This document shows positions 7,737 to 56,114 of a DNA stretch of 64,000 nucleotides, in pieces. A program made the translations under genes and the position numbers. The notes beneath the pieces are model-generated. The model was not told the origin of the DNA. It searched no databases and saw nothing but the letters and a program-made list of their open reading frames with translations. Source of the stretch: Domibacillus sp. DTU_2020_1001157_1_SI_ALB_TIR_016 (GTDB lineage Bacteria > Bacillota > Bacilli > Bacillales > Domibacillaceae). The stretch is from contig NZ_CP135439.1 of NCBI RefSeq assembly GCF_032341995.1, forward strand, positions 1,364,001 to 1,428,000. The letters are read 5' to 3'. The stretch's first letter is position 1, and every line of letters begins with the position of its first letter.

Positions 7737-8702
7737 ATGGCGATTGAAATGTATAAGGATATTATAAAAATAACGGTGCCAACCCCTTTTCCAATCGGTG
7801 ACGTCAATACATATATTGTAAAAGGAGACCGGCTGACCCTGATCGATGCGGGTATTCGTACGGAAGAAGCAGACGCCGCCTTAAAAGCAGGATTGAAAAA
7901 CGCTGGCTACGAGGCTTCGGACATTGAACAAGTGGTTTTAACTCACCATCATCCTGACCATATCGGGCTTTTAGATCAATTTAACGTCCATATATATGGT
8001 CATGAGTACGCCAAAAATTGGCTTTCCTATAATGAGCCCTTTATGCAATGGCGCAAAGTGTTTTTCCTCGCTCTTTTTAAAGAGTTTGGTATTCCGGCAG
8101 ACAAGTACAAAATGGCAGCGAATCTAGAAAAAGCACTGTCTTTTGGATCGCAGAGGAGCCGGCTCAGCGGTTTTTTAAAAGAGGGAGATACTGTACCGGG
8201 CCTGCCGGATTTTCGTGTGTTTGAAACGCCGGGCCATGCACAGAGCCATCTTGTTTTTTACCGGGAAAAGGACGGCCTCCTTCTGGCCGGAGACCATATA
8301 CTAAAAACTGTTTCGTCAAATCCTCTGATTGAACCGCCAATGGAGGTGGGAGGGGAACGAAGCAAGTCACTGCTTCAATATCATCATTCACTGAAAAAAA
8401 TAATGGATCTGGATATCAGCCATGTGATGACAGGGCATGGGAATGATCTTTCATCGATCAAGCCGCTGCTTCAGCGCCGCTTTGAACGGCAGCACGAACG
8501 GGCTATGCTTGTTTTATCCATGCTTCAAAGCCGGCCTATGACTATGTTTGAGCTGTGTATCCAGCTGTTTCCGGAAGTATACGAAAAACAAACCGGCTTA
8601 ACGCTGTCTGAAACAGCCGGACAAGTCGATTATTTGCTCCAGCAGGGAAGTATTCGTGCAGACCGGGCAGAGGACGGAGCGATTTATTACTATGGAGCGT
8701 AA
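7737..8702 (+). CDS. yqjP: MBL-fold metallohydrolase, YqjP-like
   Basis: 321 residues. The zinc motif THHHPDHIG, a following GHAQSHLVF and AGDHIL give the metallo-beta-lactamase core; the last ~90 residues look like the winged-helix tail common in LACTB2-type proteins. Substrate is unknown. The ATG follows GAGGTG. The end overlaps the next gene by 11 bases, so the two are co-expressed. Confidence 0.8.
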   Translation: MAIEMYKDIIKITVPTPFPIGDVNTYIVKGDRLTLIDAGIRTEEADAALKAGLKNAGYEASDIEQVVLTHHHPDHIGLLDQFNVHIYGHEYAKNWLSYNEPFMQWRKVFFLALFKEFGIPADKYKMAANLEKALSFGSQRSRLSGFLKEGDTVPGLPDFRVFETPGHAQSHLVFYREKDGLLLAGDHILKTVSSNPLIEPPMEVGGERSKSLLQYHHSLKKIMDLDISHVMTGHGNDLSSIKPLLQRRFERQHERAMLVLSMLQSRPMTMFELCIQLFPEVYEKQTGLTLSETAGQVDYLLQQGSIRADRAEDGAIYYYGA

Positions 8703-9468
8703 TCAAGAAAAAGTTGTGGTGATCACAGGTGCTTCATCCGGACTTGGTACAGAACTTGCGAGGGCTGCCGGAGCAAAAGGATACCGTCTTGTGCTTCTTG
8801 CAAGACGGCTGGACCGGTTAAAGAAGCTGCAGAAGGAGCTGAGCGGACAGGGCGTCTCTGTCCGCGTGTTTGAAGCGGATGTGGCGGACAGGCAGAGAAT
8901 GGAAGAGGTGTTTAAACAAATAGGCACGGTTGATGTACTGATTAACAATGCGGGAGTCGGTTTTTTTACATGGGCACATGAAGCGAAGGCGGAGGAAACC
9001 AAGCAGATGCTTGATGTAAATGTGAGCGGGCTGATTACGTGCTGTGAACTGGTTATTCCGCACATGATGGCGCGCCGGAGCGGTCATATTATCAATATTG
9101 CGTCACAAGCCGGCAAGATGGCTACGCCAAAGTCAGCCGTTTATGCGGCAACAAAACATGCAGTACTCGGTTACACGAATAGCCTGAGAATGGAAATGAG
9201 CCGGGCCGGGGTGCTGGTGACGGCCATTAATCCCGGCCCGATTGCGACCCCGTTTTTTGATCAGGCCGACCCGGAAGGCACGTACGTAAAAAATGCCGGC
9301 CGTTTTATGCTGGACCCAAAAAAAGTAGCCGAAAAAACGATTGCCATCATCGGACGGCCGGTGCGGGAAGTGAATGTTCCGCGCTGGATGGCCGCAGGCA
9401 GCCGCATTCATTCCCTGTTTCCAAACGCAGTTGAAAAGCTGGGGAAAAACGCTTTTTTCAAAAAATAA
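8692..9468 (+). CDS. yqjQ: Short-chain dehydrogenase/reductase, YqjQ-like
   Basis: 258 residues. Classical SDR motifs are present: TGASSGLG for dinucleotide binding, NNAG, the serine in NIASQAG, and YAATKHA with the YxxxK catalytic pair. The start at ATG 8692 lies inside the end of the upstream gene; a longer frame from 8656 is not supported by homologues. The physiological substrate is unknown. A GC hairpin follows the stop, but its T-run is displaced by the repeat element described below. Confidence 0.85.
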   Translation: MERNQEKVVVITGASSGLGTELARAAGAKGYRLVLLARRLDRLKKLQKELSGQGVSVRVFEADVADRQRMEEVFKQIGTVDVLINNAGVGFFTWAHEAKAEETKQMLDVNVSGLITCCELVIPHMMARRSGHIINIASQAGKMATPKSAVYAATKHAVLGYTNSLRMEMSRAGVLVTAINPGPIATPFFDQADPEGTYVKNAGRFMLDPKKVAEKTIAIIGRPVREVNVPRWMAAGSRIHSLFPNAVEKLGKNAFFKK

Positions 9469-9469
9469 A

Positions 9470-9490
9470 AAGGAGCCGATTCGGCTCCTT
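9470..9490 (+). repeat. Left copy of duplicated terminator hairpin, flanking repeat element A
   Basis: A 10-bp stem (AAGGAGCCGA/TCGGCTCCTT) directly after the yqjQ stop, without a T-run. The same 21 bases recur at 9727-9747 with two central mismatches, there followed by T5. It reads as one half of a terminator duplicated when element A inserted. Confidence 0.65.
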
Positions 9491-9492
9491 GC

Positions 9493-9724
9493 AGATTGTA
9501 GACAAATAAAATTAATTGCCAAAGGATTTCTTTCGTTTCTTTTTTATGCAAGTCGCGCAGGCGGCTTCGCTTTCCATGGGGCCCCGTCTATGTCGCCATG
9601 CGGCCCAGCCGGCCGGCTTTCCCTATCGGCTCTTTTTAAGAAGCAATGTTTCTTGGAAAGTCTCCTGCCTATTTTCGGCGGTGAAAACTTTTATAAAAAA
9701 GACTGACGACTTTGTCGACAGTCT
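9493..9724 (-). mobile_element. Non-autonomous repeat element A (short form, about 232 bp)
   Basis: The ends form a 14-base imperfect terminal inverted repeat, AGATTGTAGACAAA (9493-9506) against AGACTGTCGACAAA read inward from 9724, 12 of 14 matching. Both end regions are clearly homologous, in reverse orientation, to the 556-bp element at 53975-54530; the middle is mostly deleted. It has no credible coding capacity. The end near 9724 carries a hairpin followed by a T-run when read on the minus strand (9695-9723). It lies between two near-identical terminator hairpins, so it appears to have inserted in the yqjQ terminator. Family assignment (IS1182-like MITE) is a guess. Confidence 0.65.
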
Positions 9725-9726
9725 CA

Positions 9727-9750
9727 AAGGAGCCGAGCCGGCTCCTTTTT
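9727..9750 (+). terminator. Right copy of yqjQ terminator
   Basis: AAGGAGCCGA/CCGGCTCCTT hairpin followed by T5, partly duplicating 9470-9490. It ends where the convergent hydrolase gene ends. Confidence 0.7.
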
Positions 9751-10711
9751 ATGATGGATATAAATCAAACTCTGCCAGAAAGCGATCAATGGCTTTTTCA
9801 TATTCTTCCGGATTTTCATTATAAGATTGAGCGTGTCCGCCTTTGTCGGCCATAAAGAGCTGTTTCGGCCCCTTTTTTGCTTCAAACAGCGCTTCTGTCA
9901 TATCAGGAAGGATAAAGTCATCTTCTTTGCTGTGAATAAAAAGAACCGGCTTCTCGATGGATTGAATCGCTTCAAGCGGAGACAGCTCTGTCATTTTATA
10001 ACGCCCGCGCAGCCAAACGGCCCATTCAGCAATCGTCATAAAAAAGGGAGGAGAAAAACCGAGCTCCCTTTTCATTTGATGACGCACCTGCTGCCGAAAA
10101 TCTGAAAACGGACAATCGGCTATATAAAAAGATGCTTTGTCTTCCACTGTGCCGGCATAAAGTAAAAGCGTAACGGCACCCATTGATTCTCCATGGATGC
10201 CAAAGCGGACACTCTCACCTTCCCGGCGGATCAATTCATCAATGACGGCTTTTAAATCCTGCTTTTCAAAATGACCATAGCTTGTAAAAGATCCCTCGGA
10301 CTCCCCGTGTCGGCGATGATCAAAAAGAATTGCGTTAAAGCCGCGTTTTAAAAATACATTCATATATTTTACGGAGTTGATTTTATGCTCTGTAACTCCA
10401 TGGCAGAAGATCACATATGGACGGCCGGGATTGGGCGTAATAAAAACACTTTTTAAACGGGTACCGTCTATAGAGCGGACCCACACTTCTTCTTTTGGAA
10501 GCTGCCTGTATAGCTCAAGGTCGAATCGCCCGGCTCTCGTTTCCCGTTCTGCAACCGCTTCTTCCGCTTTTTTGGCGATATACAAAATCCGCTGGGATAG
10601 ATAAAGGCCGGTTCCTGCTATGGCCAGTACCGCGGAAGCGCTGGCGGCCAGGCCCTTTTTTACAGCCGATGCGCGTCGTAGTCGGCTGTTTTTGAGATAT
10701 CTTGTATCCAT
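9749..10711 (-). CDS. yqkD: Alpha/beta hydrolase, YqkD-like, membrane-anchored
   Basis: 320 residues. A basic N-terminus and a hydrophobic segment at about residues 22-42 form a signal anchor. The hydrolase core has the nucleophile elbow GIHGESMGAV, VIFCHGVTEH forming the oxyanion region, FIHSKEDDFI with the likely Asp, and GGHAQSY with the His. The likely activity is an esterase; substrate is unknown. The start has a strong GGAGG 10 bases upstream, which places the gene's first 52 bases inside the end of the upstream aldo/keto reductase gene. Confidence 0.8.
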   Translation of the reverse strand: MDTRYLKNSRLRRASAVKKGLAASASAVLAIAGTGLYLSQRILYIAKKAEEAVAERETRAGRFDLELYRQLPKEEVWVRSIDGTRLKSVFITPNPGRPYVIFCHGVTEHKINSVKYMNVFLKRGFNAILFDHRRHGESEGSFTSYGHFEKQDLKAVIDELIRREGESVRFGIHGESMGAVTLLLYAGTVEDKASFYIADCPFSDFRQQVRHQMKRELGFSPPFFMTIAEWAVWLRGRYKMTELSPLEAIQSIEKPVLFIHSKEDDFILPDMTEALFEAKKGPKQLFMADKGGHAQSYNENPEEYEKAIDRFLAEFDLYPS

Positions 10712-43220: not shown

Positions 43221-43889
43221 ATGATCCCGATTCTTTCAGCAGGGATTGCACCTGGTCTTGCACTTTTAGTCTTTTTTTATTTGCGTGATCGCTATGAAAC
43301 AGAACCGATCTCAACGGTTGCCAAAGCGTTTTTATACGGTATTGTGGTAACATTTCCGGTTATGTTTTTTCAATATGTGCTGATGGAGGAAAAAGTCGTC
43401 GATGAAGGCTTTATTCAGGCGTTCTGCGCGATTGCTATCCCGGAAGAGTTTATGAAATGGTTTATTTTGTATTTTCTTATTTATTCGCATACACATTTTG
43501 ATGAGCCTTATGATGGAATTGTGTATGCAACGAGTGTTTCGCTTGGATTTGCTACGGCAGAAAATGTCCTGTATTTAATCGCGCATGGAGTAGAATATGC
43601 TTTTGTAAGAGCGCTCCTGCCTGTGTCAAGCCATGCGCTGTTTGGCGCGATTATGGGGTATTATATCAGCCGTGCCAAATTCGGAGACCGGCGTTTAGAA
43701 AAGAAAATGCTGGCTCTGGCTTTTTTTGTGCCGTTTCTGCTTCACGGGTTATTTGACTACATTCTGGTTATCGAAAGCACTTGGATTTATTATATGATTC
43801 CGTTTATGCTGTTTTTGTGGTGGTTTGCCATGCAAAAAGTAAAAAAAGCACACATTCTGACAGATGCATACCATAAGCTGAAATTGTAA
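43221..43889 (+). CDS. prsW: Membrane protease PrsW
   Basis: 222 residues, about eight hydrophobic segments. The catalytic glutamates are in IPEEFMKWFILY, with HTHFDEPYDGIVYA, SLGFATAENVLYL and HALFGAIMGYY completing the glutamic-type site. In B. subtilis it performs site-1 cleavage of anti-sigma RsiW. ATG 43221 after GAGGGA; the 30-codon upstream extension is rejected because homologues start MxxILSAGIAPG. Confidence 0.92.
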   Translation: MIPILSAGIAPGLALLVFFYLRDRYETEPISTVAKAFLYGIVVTFPVMFFQYVLMEEKVVDEGFIQAFCAIAIPEEFMKWFILYFLIYSHTHFDEPYDGIVYATSVSLGFATAENVLYLIAHGVEYAFVRALLPVSSHALFGAIMGYYISRAKFGDRRLEKKMLALAFFVPFLLHGLFDYILVIESTWIYYMIPFMLFLWWFAMQKVKKAHILTDAYHKLKL

Positions 43890-53237: not shown

Positions 53238-53963
53238 ATGATAAGGAGAAACAGCCTGCTTCTTTTTTGGACGGCAGCGCTCTCTTTCATATTAAGCGGC
53301 TGCTTATATCCTGAGGAGAAGTTAAGGCAAAATGAACAGCCGTATGAAGACCAGTTACGAGCCGTTCAAACGGCGGTTGATCAATTCCAAAGGGAAGAGG
53401 ATGGCATTTTGCCGATTAAAACAAAGGAAAATAATCCCGATCTTTATGAAAAGTATCCGGTTGATTTTGGAAAAATCTCACCTCGTTTTATGGCGGAGCC
53501 GCCAGGGAATGCGTTTGAAAGTGGCGGCATTTACCAGTACGTACTTGTAGATGTCGAAAAAAATCCAACCGTCAAACTGATTGATTTGCGCATAGCTGAA
53601 CAAATTCGAAGCGTGAATATTCGCCTTCTTGCCCACAATTATCCTCCTTTTAAAGAGACACTGGCCGATAATGTATATTCACTCGATTTTAAGGAACTTG
53701 GATTTGCAGAAGAGCCTTATGTAACAAGTCCTTATTCCGGACGGCAGCTTCCACTGGTCATAAGTGGTGACGGAACGCTTTATGTAGATTATGCGGCTGA
53801 TTTGTATACAGCCCTTCAAAAATTGGACAAGCTTCCTGCGCCTGGCCAAGATATTCGCAGCCTGCTTATCGAGTCTTCTCCGATTGTACCGGCATTTTCA
53901 CTGCCTTATACGGTCGATGAACAAGGAGAGCCTGTTTTTATGAATAAAAAGAAGCCTGCTTAA
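53238..53963 (+). CDS. yphF: YphF-like lipoprotein
   Basis: 241 residues. Lipoprotein signal peptide with lipobox LSGC (Cys at about 22). The mature part has no motif I recognise. In B. subtilis yphF also lies between yphE and spoIVA. Its terminator is split by the insertion of repeat element B. Confidence 0.8.
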   Translation: MIRRNSLLLFWTAALSFILSGCLYPEEKLRQNEQPYEDQLRAVQTAVDQFQREEDGILPIKTKENNPDLYEKYPVDFGKISPRFMAEPPGNAFESGGIYQYVLVDVEKNPTVKLIDLRIAEQIRSVNIRLLAHNYPPFKETLADNVYSLDFKELGFAEEPYVTSPYSGRQLPLVISGDGTLYVDYAADLYTALQKLDKLPAPGQDIRSLLIESSPIVPAFSLPYTVDEQGEPVFMNKKKPA

Positions 53964-53974
53964 CATGCAGGCTT
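53951..53974 (+). repeat. Left copy of 24-bp direct repeat (yphF terminator hairpin)
   Basis: AAGCCTGC/GCAGGCTT hairpin containing the yphF stop codon. The same 24 bases recur exactly at 54531-54554. It is read as target-site duplication by element B; here the hairpin lacks its T-run. Confidence 0.8.
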
Positions 53975-54530
53975 GAGACTGACGGCAAAGTCGTCAGTCT
54001 TTTTTTATGAAAGTTTTCACCGCCGAAAACGAGCAGGAGACTTTTTGAGAAACCTCACTTTTTAAAAAGAGCCGATAGGGGAAGCCGGCCGTACTTCGCG
54101 CATCCTAGGGCAGTGCGGGAGCTTCCTCGGCGCATGCGCCTGCGGGGTCTCCCGACTCACTGTGCATCCCGCAGGAGTCTTCGTCCGGCCGGCTTCCCCA
54201 TTTGTTCTGAAAAAGCAGCAAGAAGTGCATCTCCACCTGCCTTTTATCGCTTTGGTGATAGGGCAGGGATGTGTATCTATTAAGCTGTGCAGTCTTATTT
54301 AACCGCACAGGCGGCGGGGGGAGGGTGTGGCGAAGACTCCTATGGGACTAGCGGGCCAGCTGAGACCGGCTGGGCAGCACGGCTGGAAAGACGGGCTCAG
54401 CGCCTGCCCCATGGAAAGCGAAGCCGCGCATCCGCCGCCTTGTCGGCTCTCATCCCAACCGCCTGCACACCTTGCATAAAAAAGACATGAAAGAAATCCT
54501 TTCCCAATAGATTTTATTTGTCTACAATCT
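53975..54530 (+). mobile_element. Non-autonomous repeat element B (long form, 556 bp)
   Basis: Flanked by an exact 24-bp duplication of a terminator hairpin. Ends: AGACTGACGGCAAA (53976-53989) and, inward from 54530, AGATTGTAGACAAA, 10 of 14 matching. Its first ~115 and last ~120 bases match element A at 9493-9724 in reverse orientation. The core contains a perfect 14-bp inverted repeat (54078-54091 with 54186-54199) around a GGCGCATGCGCC palindrome. It starts with its own hairpin plus T7 (53978-54007). No transposase-like protein is encoded; the overlapping open frames are GC-rich noise. Probably a MITE mobilised in trans. Confidence 0.75.
53977..54007 (+). terminator. Terminator carried at the end of element B
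   Basis: GACTGACGGC/GTCGTCAGTC stem with AAA loop followed by T7, just inside the left terminal repeat. It could replace the yphF terminator disrupted by insertion. Confidence 0.7.
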
Positions 54531-54561
54531 GAAGCCTGCTTAACATGCAGGCTTCTTTTTT
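54531..54561 (+). terminator. Right copy of yphF terminator, with T-run
   Basis: Exact repeat of 53951-53974 followed by CT7. It is the complete terminator half and insulates spoIVA from upstream transcription. Confidence 0.85.
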
Positions 54562-54562
54562 T

Positions 54563-54591
54563 GCATACATTTAAAAAAACGCTCATACACT
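54563..54591 (+). promoter_or_regulatory. Sigma-E promoter of spoIVA
   Basis: GCATACA (54563-54569), 14 bases, CATACACT (54584-54591), a full match to the sigma-E -10 consensus. spoIVA is sigma-E controlled in B. subtilis. Confidence 0.65.
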
Positions 54592-54638
54592 GTATGGCAG
54601 GCGGCGGACGAGCCGTTCGAAACGGGAGGGGGCTGCTG

Positions 54639-56114
54639 ATGGAAAATACAGAAGTCATTAAGGATATTGCCGAGCGGACCGAAGGCGATATTTATTTAGG
54701 CGTTGTCGGTGCTGTCAGGACGGGGAAATCAACATTTATAAAGAAGTTTATGGAGCTTTTGGTGCTGCCGAACATGGATAGTGAATCGGAACGGCGCCGT
54801 GCACAGGATGAACTGCCGCAAAGCGCATCCGGCAAAACCATTATGACGACAGAACCAAAATTTGTTCCGAGTCGTGCGGCGGCTGTGCAGGCGGGCGGTG
54901 TGCTCGTTAATATTCGGCTGGTAGACTGTGTAGGCTATGTTGTGCCAGAAGCGAAAGGATATGAAGATGAACACGGTCCACGGATGATTCAGACACCATG
55001 GCATGATGAACCGATTCCGTTCGATGAAGCAGCGGATATTGGAACGAGAAAGGTGATTGAAGAGCATTCGACGATTGGGGTAGTGGTCACAACAGACGGG
55101 TCATTCGGTGAACTGCGCCGCCACACTTATATTGAGGCGGAGGAACGGGCCGTTGCAGGATTAAAAGAAGTAGGCAAGCCTTTTATCTTGATTATAAACT
55201 CGGCCCGGCCTGAAAATTTGGAAACTTTAGAGCTGCAGCAGGAGCTGGCCGAAAAATATGATATTCCGGTTCTCGCCATGTCGGTTGAATCGATGACAGA
55301 ATCGAACGTGCTGCATGTTTTGCAGGAAGCTTTATTTGAATTCCCGGTTCATGAAGTGAACGTTCATCTTCCTTCCTGGATTATGGCGTTAGATGAATCA
55401 CATTGGCTTCGGGATAAATACAACGAAATGGTAAAAGAAACGGTCAAGGATATTAAAAGGCTCCGTGATGTGAACCGTGTTGTCGACCAGTTTGGCGGCG
55501 GTGAGTATATTGAGTCCGCTGTCTTAACAGGAATGGATATGGGGCAGGGAATTGCAGAAATCAACGTGAATGCGCCAAATGGCTTGTATGAAAAGATCGT
55601 CAACGAAATTATTGGGGAACCATTACGCGGCAAAGAGCATTTGCTAGAAATTATCCAAGATTATGCTCATATTAAGGAAGAATATGGGCAGGTAGAAGAA
55701 GCGCTGAGAATGGTCAAGCAGACCGGTTACGGTGTAGCGGTTCCGTCCATCAACGAAATGCGCTTGGAAGAACCAAAAATTATTCGCCACGGCTCGCGTT
55801 ATGGCGTACGGATGAAAGCAGTGGCGCCATCTATTCACATGATTCAAGTAGATGTTGAATCGGAATTTTCACCGATCATCGGCTCAGAAAAACAAAGTGA
55901 AGAGCTCGTTCATCACGTGATGAAAGACTTCGAAGATGATCCGCTGTCCGTTTGGAACAGTGACATTTTCGGGCGTAATTTAAGCTCTATCGTCCGGGAC
56001 GGTATTCAGTCGAAAGTATCCTTGATGCCTGATCATGCCCGAAGCAAGTTAAAAGATACGCTTGAAAAAATCATCAATGAAGGCTCAGGCGGAATGATTG
56101 CGATACTGCTTTAA
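54639..56114 (+). CDS. spoIVA: Stage IV sporulation protein A
   Basis: 491 residues, one fewer than in B. subtilis. Walker A GAVRTGKST near residues 24-32, and NIRLVDCVGY as the switch region. It is the ATPase that polymerises on the forespore as the coat basement layer. ATG 54639 follows GGGAGGGGG; the 26-codon extension upstream includes promoter sequence and is rejected. Confidence 0.96.
   Translation: MENTEVIKDIAERTEGDIYLGVVGAVRTGKSTFIKKFMELLVLPNMDSESERRRAQDELPQSASGKTIMTTEPKFVPSRAAAVQAGGVLVNIRLVDCVGYVVPEAKGYEDEHGPRMIQTPWHDEPIPFDEAADIGTRKVIEEHSTIGVVVTTDGSFGELRRHTYIEAEERAVAGLKEVGKPFILIINSARPENLETLELQQELAEKYDIPVLAMSVESMTESNVLHVLQEALFEFPVHEVNVHLPSWIMALDESHWLRDKYNEMVKETVKDIKRLRDVNRVVDQFGGGEYIESAVLTGMDMGQGIAEINVNAPNGLYEKIVNEIIGEPLRGKEHLLEIIQDYAHIKEEYGQVEEALRMVKQTGYGVAVPSINEMRLEEPKIIRHGSRYGVRMKAVAPSIHMIQVDVESEFSPIIGSEKQSEELVHHVMKDFEDDPLSVWNSDIFGRNLSSIVRDGIQSKVSLMPDHARSKLKDTLEKIINEGSGGMIAILL

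What the first reader, a model, noticed from the sequence alone, without database searches (positions are those of the whole stretch)
53951..54554. Repeat element inserted in a terminator, with an exact 24-bp duplication of the hairpin
Seen: the 24 bases at 53951-53974 (yphF stop and terminator stem-loop) recur exactly at 54531-54554, where they are followed by the T-run. Between them is a 556-bp sequence with imperfect 14-base terminal inverted repeats. This is the signature of insertion with a long target duplication whose target is a palindrome. From memory, IS1182-type elements can duplicate palindromic targets of variable length; that link is inference. The element encodes no transposase and would be a MITE.
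Basis: partly seen in the sequence, partly recalled or inferred. Interest (0 to 1): 0.72.

Follow-up and report, generated by a model that had tools for sequence, protein, structure and literature searches.

The report
Mini-transposon that duplicates terminator hairpins
A small transposase-less jumping element sits inside the stop signal of a bacterial gene and has copied the whole hairpin of that signal on both sides, as full-length elements with the same ends do in related bacteria.

Summary
Element 53975-54531 (557 bp) lies in the yphF terminator between two exact copies of a 23-nt hairpin (53952-53974 / 54532-54554). A same-species genome has one hairpin there and no element. The window's genome has 52 convergent pairs of the same terminal repeat; in 46 of 52 the two flanks match each other better than 99% of 2,652 swapped-flank controls. 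Of 37 of the 52 sites read in the same-species genome, 20 are empty with one hairpin, 16 occupied, 1 unclear. IS1182-family elements in related genomes have the same ends (CAGACTGTAGACAAA) and the same kind of duplication: 63 of 74 loci. In 62 of 62 distinct perfect duplications (19-42 nt) the palindrome's axis is exactly the centre, so the target palindrome sets the duplication length. The window's genome keeps only a fossil IS end. The published relative IS1272 deletes its target hairpin; whole-hairpin duplication was drawn there only as a hypothetical pathway. Movement in trans by the IS1182 transposase, and cruciform recognition, are inferred.

The parts
   Evidence: ORF list; orthologs in 11 of 11 same-genus genomes searched
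53952..53974 (+). left copy of the target hairpin (23-nt target duplication)
   Evidence: single hairpin at the empty site in G012 and G016
53975..54531 (.). non-autonomous IS1182-type element (MITE), 557 bp
   Evidence: bounded by TIRs and TSD; absent from the orthologous site in the same-species genome
53975..53989 (+). left terminal inverted repeat GAGACTGACGGCAAA
53975..54006 (+). element-borne terminator-like hairpin plus T-run at the left end
   Evidence: fold -17.4 kcal/mol, z -6.4; scored
54115..54181 (.). GC-rich core segment 1, also found upstream of the transposase gene in some full-length IS1182-family elements
   Evidence: 6 of 16 IS sequences compared, 75-84% identity (L244, L292, L126, L108, L241, L281; L281 weak, E 0.006; L126 and L108 are copies from one genome)
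54330..54424 (.). core segment 2, matches the same IS segment on the opposite strand (72% over 98 columns in L126 and L108)
54517..54531 (+). right terminal inverted repeat TTTGTCTACAATCTG
54532..54554 (+). right copy of the target hairpin
54556..54562 (+). T-run of the original terminator, kept by the right copy only
   Evidence: same T-run next to the single hairpin in G012
9492..9725 (-). second copy of the family in the window (234 bp)
9469..9490 (.). left hairpin copy of the second element (20 of 22 identical to the right copy)
9726..9747 (.). right hairpin copy of the second element

Best explanation
It is a MITE: a transposase-less derivative of an IS1182-family insertion sequence, moved in trans by that family's DDE transposase. 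The transposase chooses palindromes, here the hairpins of intrinsic terminators. It joins the two element ends to the two target strands at positions exactly symmetric about the palindrome's dyad axis, usually at an A|A step (T|T on the other side), about 10 to 21 nt from the axis. Gap filling then duplicates the hairpin, so the duplication length (19-42 nt) is set by the target and not by a fixed stagger. Shown: the element, its ends, the duplication, the empty sites, the shared ends with IS1182 elements, the dyad-centred cut positions. Inferred: that the IS1182 transposase moves it in trans; the strand-joining and gap-filling chemistry (known for DDE transposases); that the target is read as an extruded cruciform rather than as a duplex palindrome.
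For: Repeated ends: 128 sites of TTTGTCTACANTCTGA at up to 2 mismatches against 12 for the reversed pattern. Of 52 non-overlapping convergent pairs, 43 (ungapped) and 46 (gapped) have flank similarity above 99% of 2,652 swapped-flank controls, 35 above every control; 47 of 52 have a T-run after the right copy or an A-run before the left. Same-species genome G012: 37 of 52 loci bridged, 20 empty with flank overlap equal to the TSD length, 16 occupied, 1 unclear. This locus: one hairpin in 10 of 11 same-genus genomes, the eleventh has another insertion. IS1182 elements: 63 of 74 two-ended loci with hairpin TSD; dyad axis = TSD centre in 62 of 62 distinct perfect TSDs and in 35 of 42 own copies, the other 7 off by one. 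Transposases match PF13751, PF05598, PF01609 and NF033551, three tested. Same-species IS: the same hairpin AAACGGCTTCCTTGTACGGAAGCCGTTT beside both ends, on two contigs. Internal core shared with 6 of 16 IS sequences compared. Fossil IS end in the own genome.
Against: No intact transposase in the window's genome, so mobilisation there is past or depends on another strain. 5 of 52 pairs show no flank match above the 99% control level in either scoring (L103, L044, L091, L046, L065). 9 of 74 IS loci gave no TSD: in 7 the script found no convincing ends, but L306 and L309 have good ends (13 and 14 of 14) and no hairpin duplication. Another IS1182 member, ISCaa15 of Amoebophilus, is listed with 4-bp direct repeats in two copies (PMC3196728 table), so the rule does not hold for the whole family. 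In 48 of 62 IS targets the stem runs on beyond the TSD, so the cut is not at the foot of the whole palindrome. No transposition was observed.
Confidence: 0.93

Rival explanations
1. Two tandem terminators existed first and a repeat grew or recombined between them; no target duplication took place.
For: Tandem terminators occur in bacteria (recalled).
Against: The 20 empty sites in the same-species genome carry one hairpin, and the flank overlap there equals the TSD length within one base (L104 read by eye); same at this locus.
Confidence: 0.01
2. The hairpins belong to the element ends and are carried along with it.
For: The left end of this element itself also folds.
Against: The flanking hairpin differs from copy to copy and is already present at empty sites.
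Confidence: 0.01
3. IS1272-like hairpin replacement (no TSD), with hairpins regenerated later.
For: IS1272 is of the same family and targets stem-loops (PMC5678879, PMC4923244).
Against: Both hairpin copies have the sequence of the empty site, not of the element; IS1182 elements outside the MITE have perfect 19-42 nt duplications.
Confidence: 0.02
4. Same element and duplication, but the transposase reads the palindrome as duplex DNA through a two-fold symmetric dimer, without cruciform or single-stranded hairpin.
For: A preferred A|A / T|T step at the cut (TSD starts with A in 54 of 62, ends with T in 53 of 62) hints at local sequence preference; exact symmetry fits a dimer as well as a cruciform.
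Against: TSD length varies from 19 to 42 nt and I saw no sequence shared between targets beyond the cut step and the A/T-rich surround (no motif search was run).
Confidence: 0.35
5. The MITE is moved by another transposase that happens to share ends with IS1182 elements.
For: No intact IS1182 gene is left in the host.
Against: Ends, target choice and TSD type agree with IS1182 elements in the same species and genus, and an internal segment with IS1182 elements of related genomes.
Confidence: 0.03

Closest known systems
Full-length IS1182-family elements of Bacillales and Enterococcus found here (e.g. Domibacillus aminovorans L238, Neobacillus drentensis L272-L279, Enterococcus mundtii L314)
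   Same: same terminal repeats, hairpin targets, hairpin duplication; shared internal core in 6 of 16 compared
   Different: they carry a transposase gene of about 436 codons and are about 1.5-1.85 kb; this element has none and is 557 bp
IS1272 / TnSha1 (IS1182 family, staphylococci; PMC5678879: abstract, sections 22, 24, 29 part 1 and passages seen; PMC4923244: passages seen)
   Same: target is a stem-loop, often a terminator, without sequence consensus
   Different: IS1272 deletes or replaces the stem-loop and makes no target duplication; here the stem-loop is duplicated. PMC5678879 draws whole-stem-loop duplication only as hypothetical pathway b
ISCaa15 (IS1182 family, Amoebophilus asiaticus; PMC3196728, passages and a table row seen)
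   Same: family assignment by its authors; 18-bp inverted repeats
   Different: 4-bp direct repeats in two copies, not a hairpin duplication
MITEs in general, and palindrome- or REP-targeting IS such as IS30 and IS1397 (recalled)
   Same: MITEs: short, no gene, inverted repeats, many copies; the IS: palindromic targets
   Different: their target duplications are short (recalled), not the whole palindrome

Membership tests
MITE | terminal inverted repeats, no transposase gene, short | tested here: met
   TIR 10 of 15, 557 bp, ORFs of 67, 67 and 119 aa only; those ORFs were not scanned against family libraries
MITE | multiple dispersed copies with target-site duplications | tested here: met
   52 pairs, 46 above the 99% control level; 20 single-hairpin empty sites
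IS1182-derived element | ends shared with a full-length IS1182-family element | tested here: met
   CAGACTGTAGACAAA or close variants at the ends of L107-L109, L111, L125, L126 and of the loci listed
IS1182-derived element | partner transposase is IS1182 by curated model | tested here: met
   NF033551 at 471, 475 and 463 bits, cut-off 270, for L112, L111, L313
IS1182-derived element | intact autonomous partner in the same genome (usual but not required for a MITE) | tested here: not met
   0 matches to NF033551; one fossil of 34 aa plus an IS end. Partner present in the same-species genome G012
IS1182-derived element | movement by that transposase | not testable with these tools
   needs an experiment
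IS1272-type hairpin replacement | target hairpin lost, no TSD | tested here: not met
   hairpin duplicated

The most novel reading that the evidence does not exclude
A structure-addressed DDE transposon whose target duplication is dictated by target geometry: the transposase recognises an extruded terminator hairpin and cuts symmetrically about its axis. In line with this, of 16 sites occupied in both strains, 3 carry the element inverted and 2 a different element class; recombination could give the same picture.
Probability: 0.4. Interest if true: 0.75.

Novelty: new variant of a known kind. Interest (0 to 1): 0.58.

Why it matters
DDE transposons usually have a target duplication of fixed length (recalled). 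Here the length follows the target palindrome, and the cuts are centred on its axis in 62 of 62 cases, which makes structure-guided target choice directly testable. It also sets two opposite outcomes, hairpin duplication here and hairpin deletion in IS1272, inside one transposase family, so the step that decides between them can be looked for by comparing the enzymes. For genome readers it explains dozens of repeats at gene ends in one Domibacillus genome and gives a simple signature (CAGACTGTAGACAAA ends between twin hairpins) for annotating such elements in Bacillales.

Tried and rejected
Rfam search of 53800-54700: five hits up to E 1, all below their gathering scores, taken as chance. IS1182 transposase in the own genome: none by profile; a protein search found one 34-aa fossil beside an IS end. 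That end had been counted among the 52 pairs as L065 and is kept in the count as a miss.

Idea that every element carries terminators at its ends to repair the cut terminator: only 9 of 102 ends of 51 own elements (L065 left out) reach the score used, 7 of 51 elements at one end or both (3 of 510 shuffled, 1 of 102 reversed ends), so it is not general. Idea that both hairpin copies are under selection: of 446 stem pairs in 44 TSD pairs, 366 are unchanged, 7 differ on both sides with pairing kept, 35 on one side with pairing kept, 38 are broken in one copy; a random-change model gives means of 2.1, 14.5 and 69.8 for the last three. This points to kept pairing, but a stem pair enters only if at least one copy pairs and the model is crude, so I only mention it.

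Idea that elements at shared sites are simple orthologs: the same-site G012 element was the best-scoring match in 6 of 15 testable cases of 16 (one of the other 9, L082, a near tie). Only 24 G012 elements were in hand, and the ranking uses alignment score, which disfavours shorter elements: in L026 and L023 the same-site element has as high an identity as the best one. Independent insertion, exchange, deletion and inversion by recombination could not be told apart. Identities include gaps; those do not.

Rejected: tandem terminators, hairpins as part of the element, IS1272-like replacement (see rivals). ISfinder and TnPedia could not be consulted, and the reviews of Siguier 2014 and 2015 were not read: PMC7190074 (2014) is not held; the 2015 statement that some IS1182 members target palindromes is taken from PMC5678879 and PMC4923244.

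Full report
What is there. The 24-base identity reported is exact. With element ends set as in the full-length relatives (CAG...CTG; GAG at the left here), the duplicated target is the 23-nt perfect hairpin 53952-53974 / 54532-54554 and the element is 53975-54531. The hairpin holds the yphF stop codon in its loop. Only the right copy keeps the T-run; the left copy is followed by the element's own hairpin plus T-run.

Organism. The window is G000:C2:1364001-1428000 of a 5.1 Mb, two-contig genome. The same-genus genome G007 has its best IS1182 match at contig 38, 27700-29007, the same place as the match in Domibacillus aminovorans DSM 1314, NZ_LQWY01000038.1.

Copies in the genome. The end pattern TTTGTCTACANTCTGA has 68+60 sites at up to two mismatches, 6+6 for the reversed control (100 of 128 places were listed). 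From the 106 own loci fetched by then I took the non-overlapping convergent pairs about 100-640 bases long with at most 5 mismatches in the two ends together: 52. They span 103 to 583 bp; 13 are of 149-151 bp. Flank comparison with a swapped-flank control: 43 of 52 ungapped and 46 of 52 gapped exceed the 99% level of 2,652 controls, 35 exceed the maximum. Five fail both: L103 and L046 (hairpins on both sides by eye, diverged), L044 (nested), L091 (degraded), L065 (fossil IS end). 47 of 52 have a T-run or A-run at the expected side.

Empty sites. At yphF-spoIVA, 10 of 11 same-genus genomes, among them the same-species G012, have one hairpin or its diverged ortholog and no element; G015 has a different-looking insertion. 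For G012, flanks of 33 of the 52 elements were searched with one typed query (30 places found, 40 of 62 candidates scored). Of these 33, 19 are empty, 8 occupied, 1 unclear (L044) and 5 were not read. The loci add this site (empty) and 8 occupied ones, which were found because they hold an end, so the ratio of empty to occupied is biased towards occupied. In all 37 of 52 are bridged: 20 empty, 16 occupied, 1 unclear; of the 15 not bridged 10 were not queried. At the empty sites the left and right flanks overlap in G012 by 20-30 bases, equal to the TSD length within one base (L104 was read by eye because its left flank aligned only in part).

Parent. No match to the IS1182 transposase model NF033551 in the own genome, but matches, many of them fragments, in 18 of 24 genomes of the family, G012 included. 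IS1182 elements L107, L108, L109, L111, L125 and L126 have ends CAGACTGTAGACAAA...TTTGTCTACAGTCTG or close variants, between exact duplicated hairpins of 22-28 nt. Three transposases tested hit DDE_Tnp_1_6, DUF772 and DDE_Tnp_1 and NF033551 at 463-475 bits. In G012 the IS is broken by contig ends, but the same hairpin AAACGGCTTCCTTGTACGGAAGCCGTTT lies beside one end on contig C100 and the other on C95. The own genome keeps a fossil: the last 34 residues at 82% identity and the adjoining IS end. A GC-rich segment of the MITE (54115-54181, and 54330-54424 inverted) also lies upstream of the transposase gene in 6 of 16 IS sequences compared.

Rule of the target. 6 cut by contig ends were dropped. 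Of 74, 63 have a TSD of 14 or more with a stem of 6 or more; two more (L289, L316) have a hairpin TSD that missed the stem threshold; 9 gave no TSD, 7 of them without convincing ends and 2 (L306, L309) with good ends. Among 62 distinct perfect TSDs (19-42 nt) the palindrome's axis is the exact centre of the TSD in 62 of 62. Paired fraction: mean 0.80, lowest 0.56; shuffled letters mean 0.41, highest 0.72. The stem extends outside the TSD in 48 of 62, and TSDs start with A in 54 and end with T in 53. Own MITE copies with an ungapped flush TSD: 35 of 42 centred, 7 off by one, some of these with decayed copies.

Mechanism. A DDE transposase that joins both element ends at two positions symmetric about the dyad gives, after gap filling, a duplication of everything between them, which is the hairpin. 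Symmetry is shown; cruciform reading is inferred. PMC5678879 (section 29) drew this route as pathway b, hypothetical, while its own element IS1272 lost the hairpin. PMC4923244 (passages) reports hairpin targeting and partial deletion by TnSha1 and several insertions into the same hairpins, in one case in both orientations. In Domibacillus, of 16 sites occupied in both strains, 3 are inverted (L019, L015, L010) and 2 of another class (L024, L100). An IS1182 member of Amoebophilus has 4-bp direct repeats, so the family is not uniform.

Print. Searches of the paper library: with IS1182 plus terminator, palindrome, stem-loop, hairpin, duplication or MITE (all 6 hits listed, the top 15-25 of 25-225 in the others), two wider ones that returned none, and (2 papers). 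I saw no listed title or abstract start that describes hairpin-long TSDs or terminator MITEs of this family. Opened in part: PMC5678879, PMC4923244, PMC7911792, PMC3196728, PMC9484755; the rest were seen as listings only. ISfinder could not be checked, and specialists may know palindromic repeats in IS1182 records.

Verdict. It is a new variant of a known kind: hairpin-targeting IS1182 elements, here with duplication instead of loss, and with abundant MITEs.

Noticed in passing
9469-9747: Second copy of the family in the window, 234 bp, between twin hairpins and between ORFs 8656-9468 (+) and 9749-10711 (-).
   Followed up: yes
G000:C1:423225-423434 (L318): Fossil IS1182 end: last 34 residues of the transposase and one terminal repeat; such an IS was once in this genome.
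   Followed up: yes
54115-54181; L144, L145, L148, L151, L154: Part of the GC-rich core also matches places in many other Bacillales genomes (up to 193 first-look candidates in one genome, 10 scored); no convergent ends or twin hairpins were found around these five loci. What it is there is open.
   Followed up: partly
L169 (G015), yphF-spoIVA junction: A different-looking insertion sits at the same terminator in another Domibacillus genome.
   Followed up: no
L115 (G002), about 1359 and 2934: Another IS1182-type element with different ends (CACTGAAAAAGTCC) has a hairpin-like repeated target, so the habit may be wider in the family.
   Followed up: no
L010 (own) / L178, L203 (G012): In G012 an element of one class is followed directly by the end of another class at the same terminator, a sign of repeated hits on one hairpin.
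   Followed up: partly
43752-43767: A lone terminal-repeat-like site (2 mismatches) without partner.
   Followed up: no
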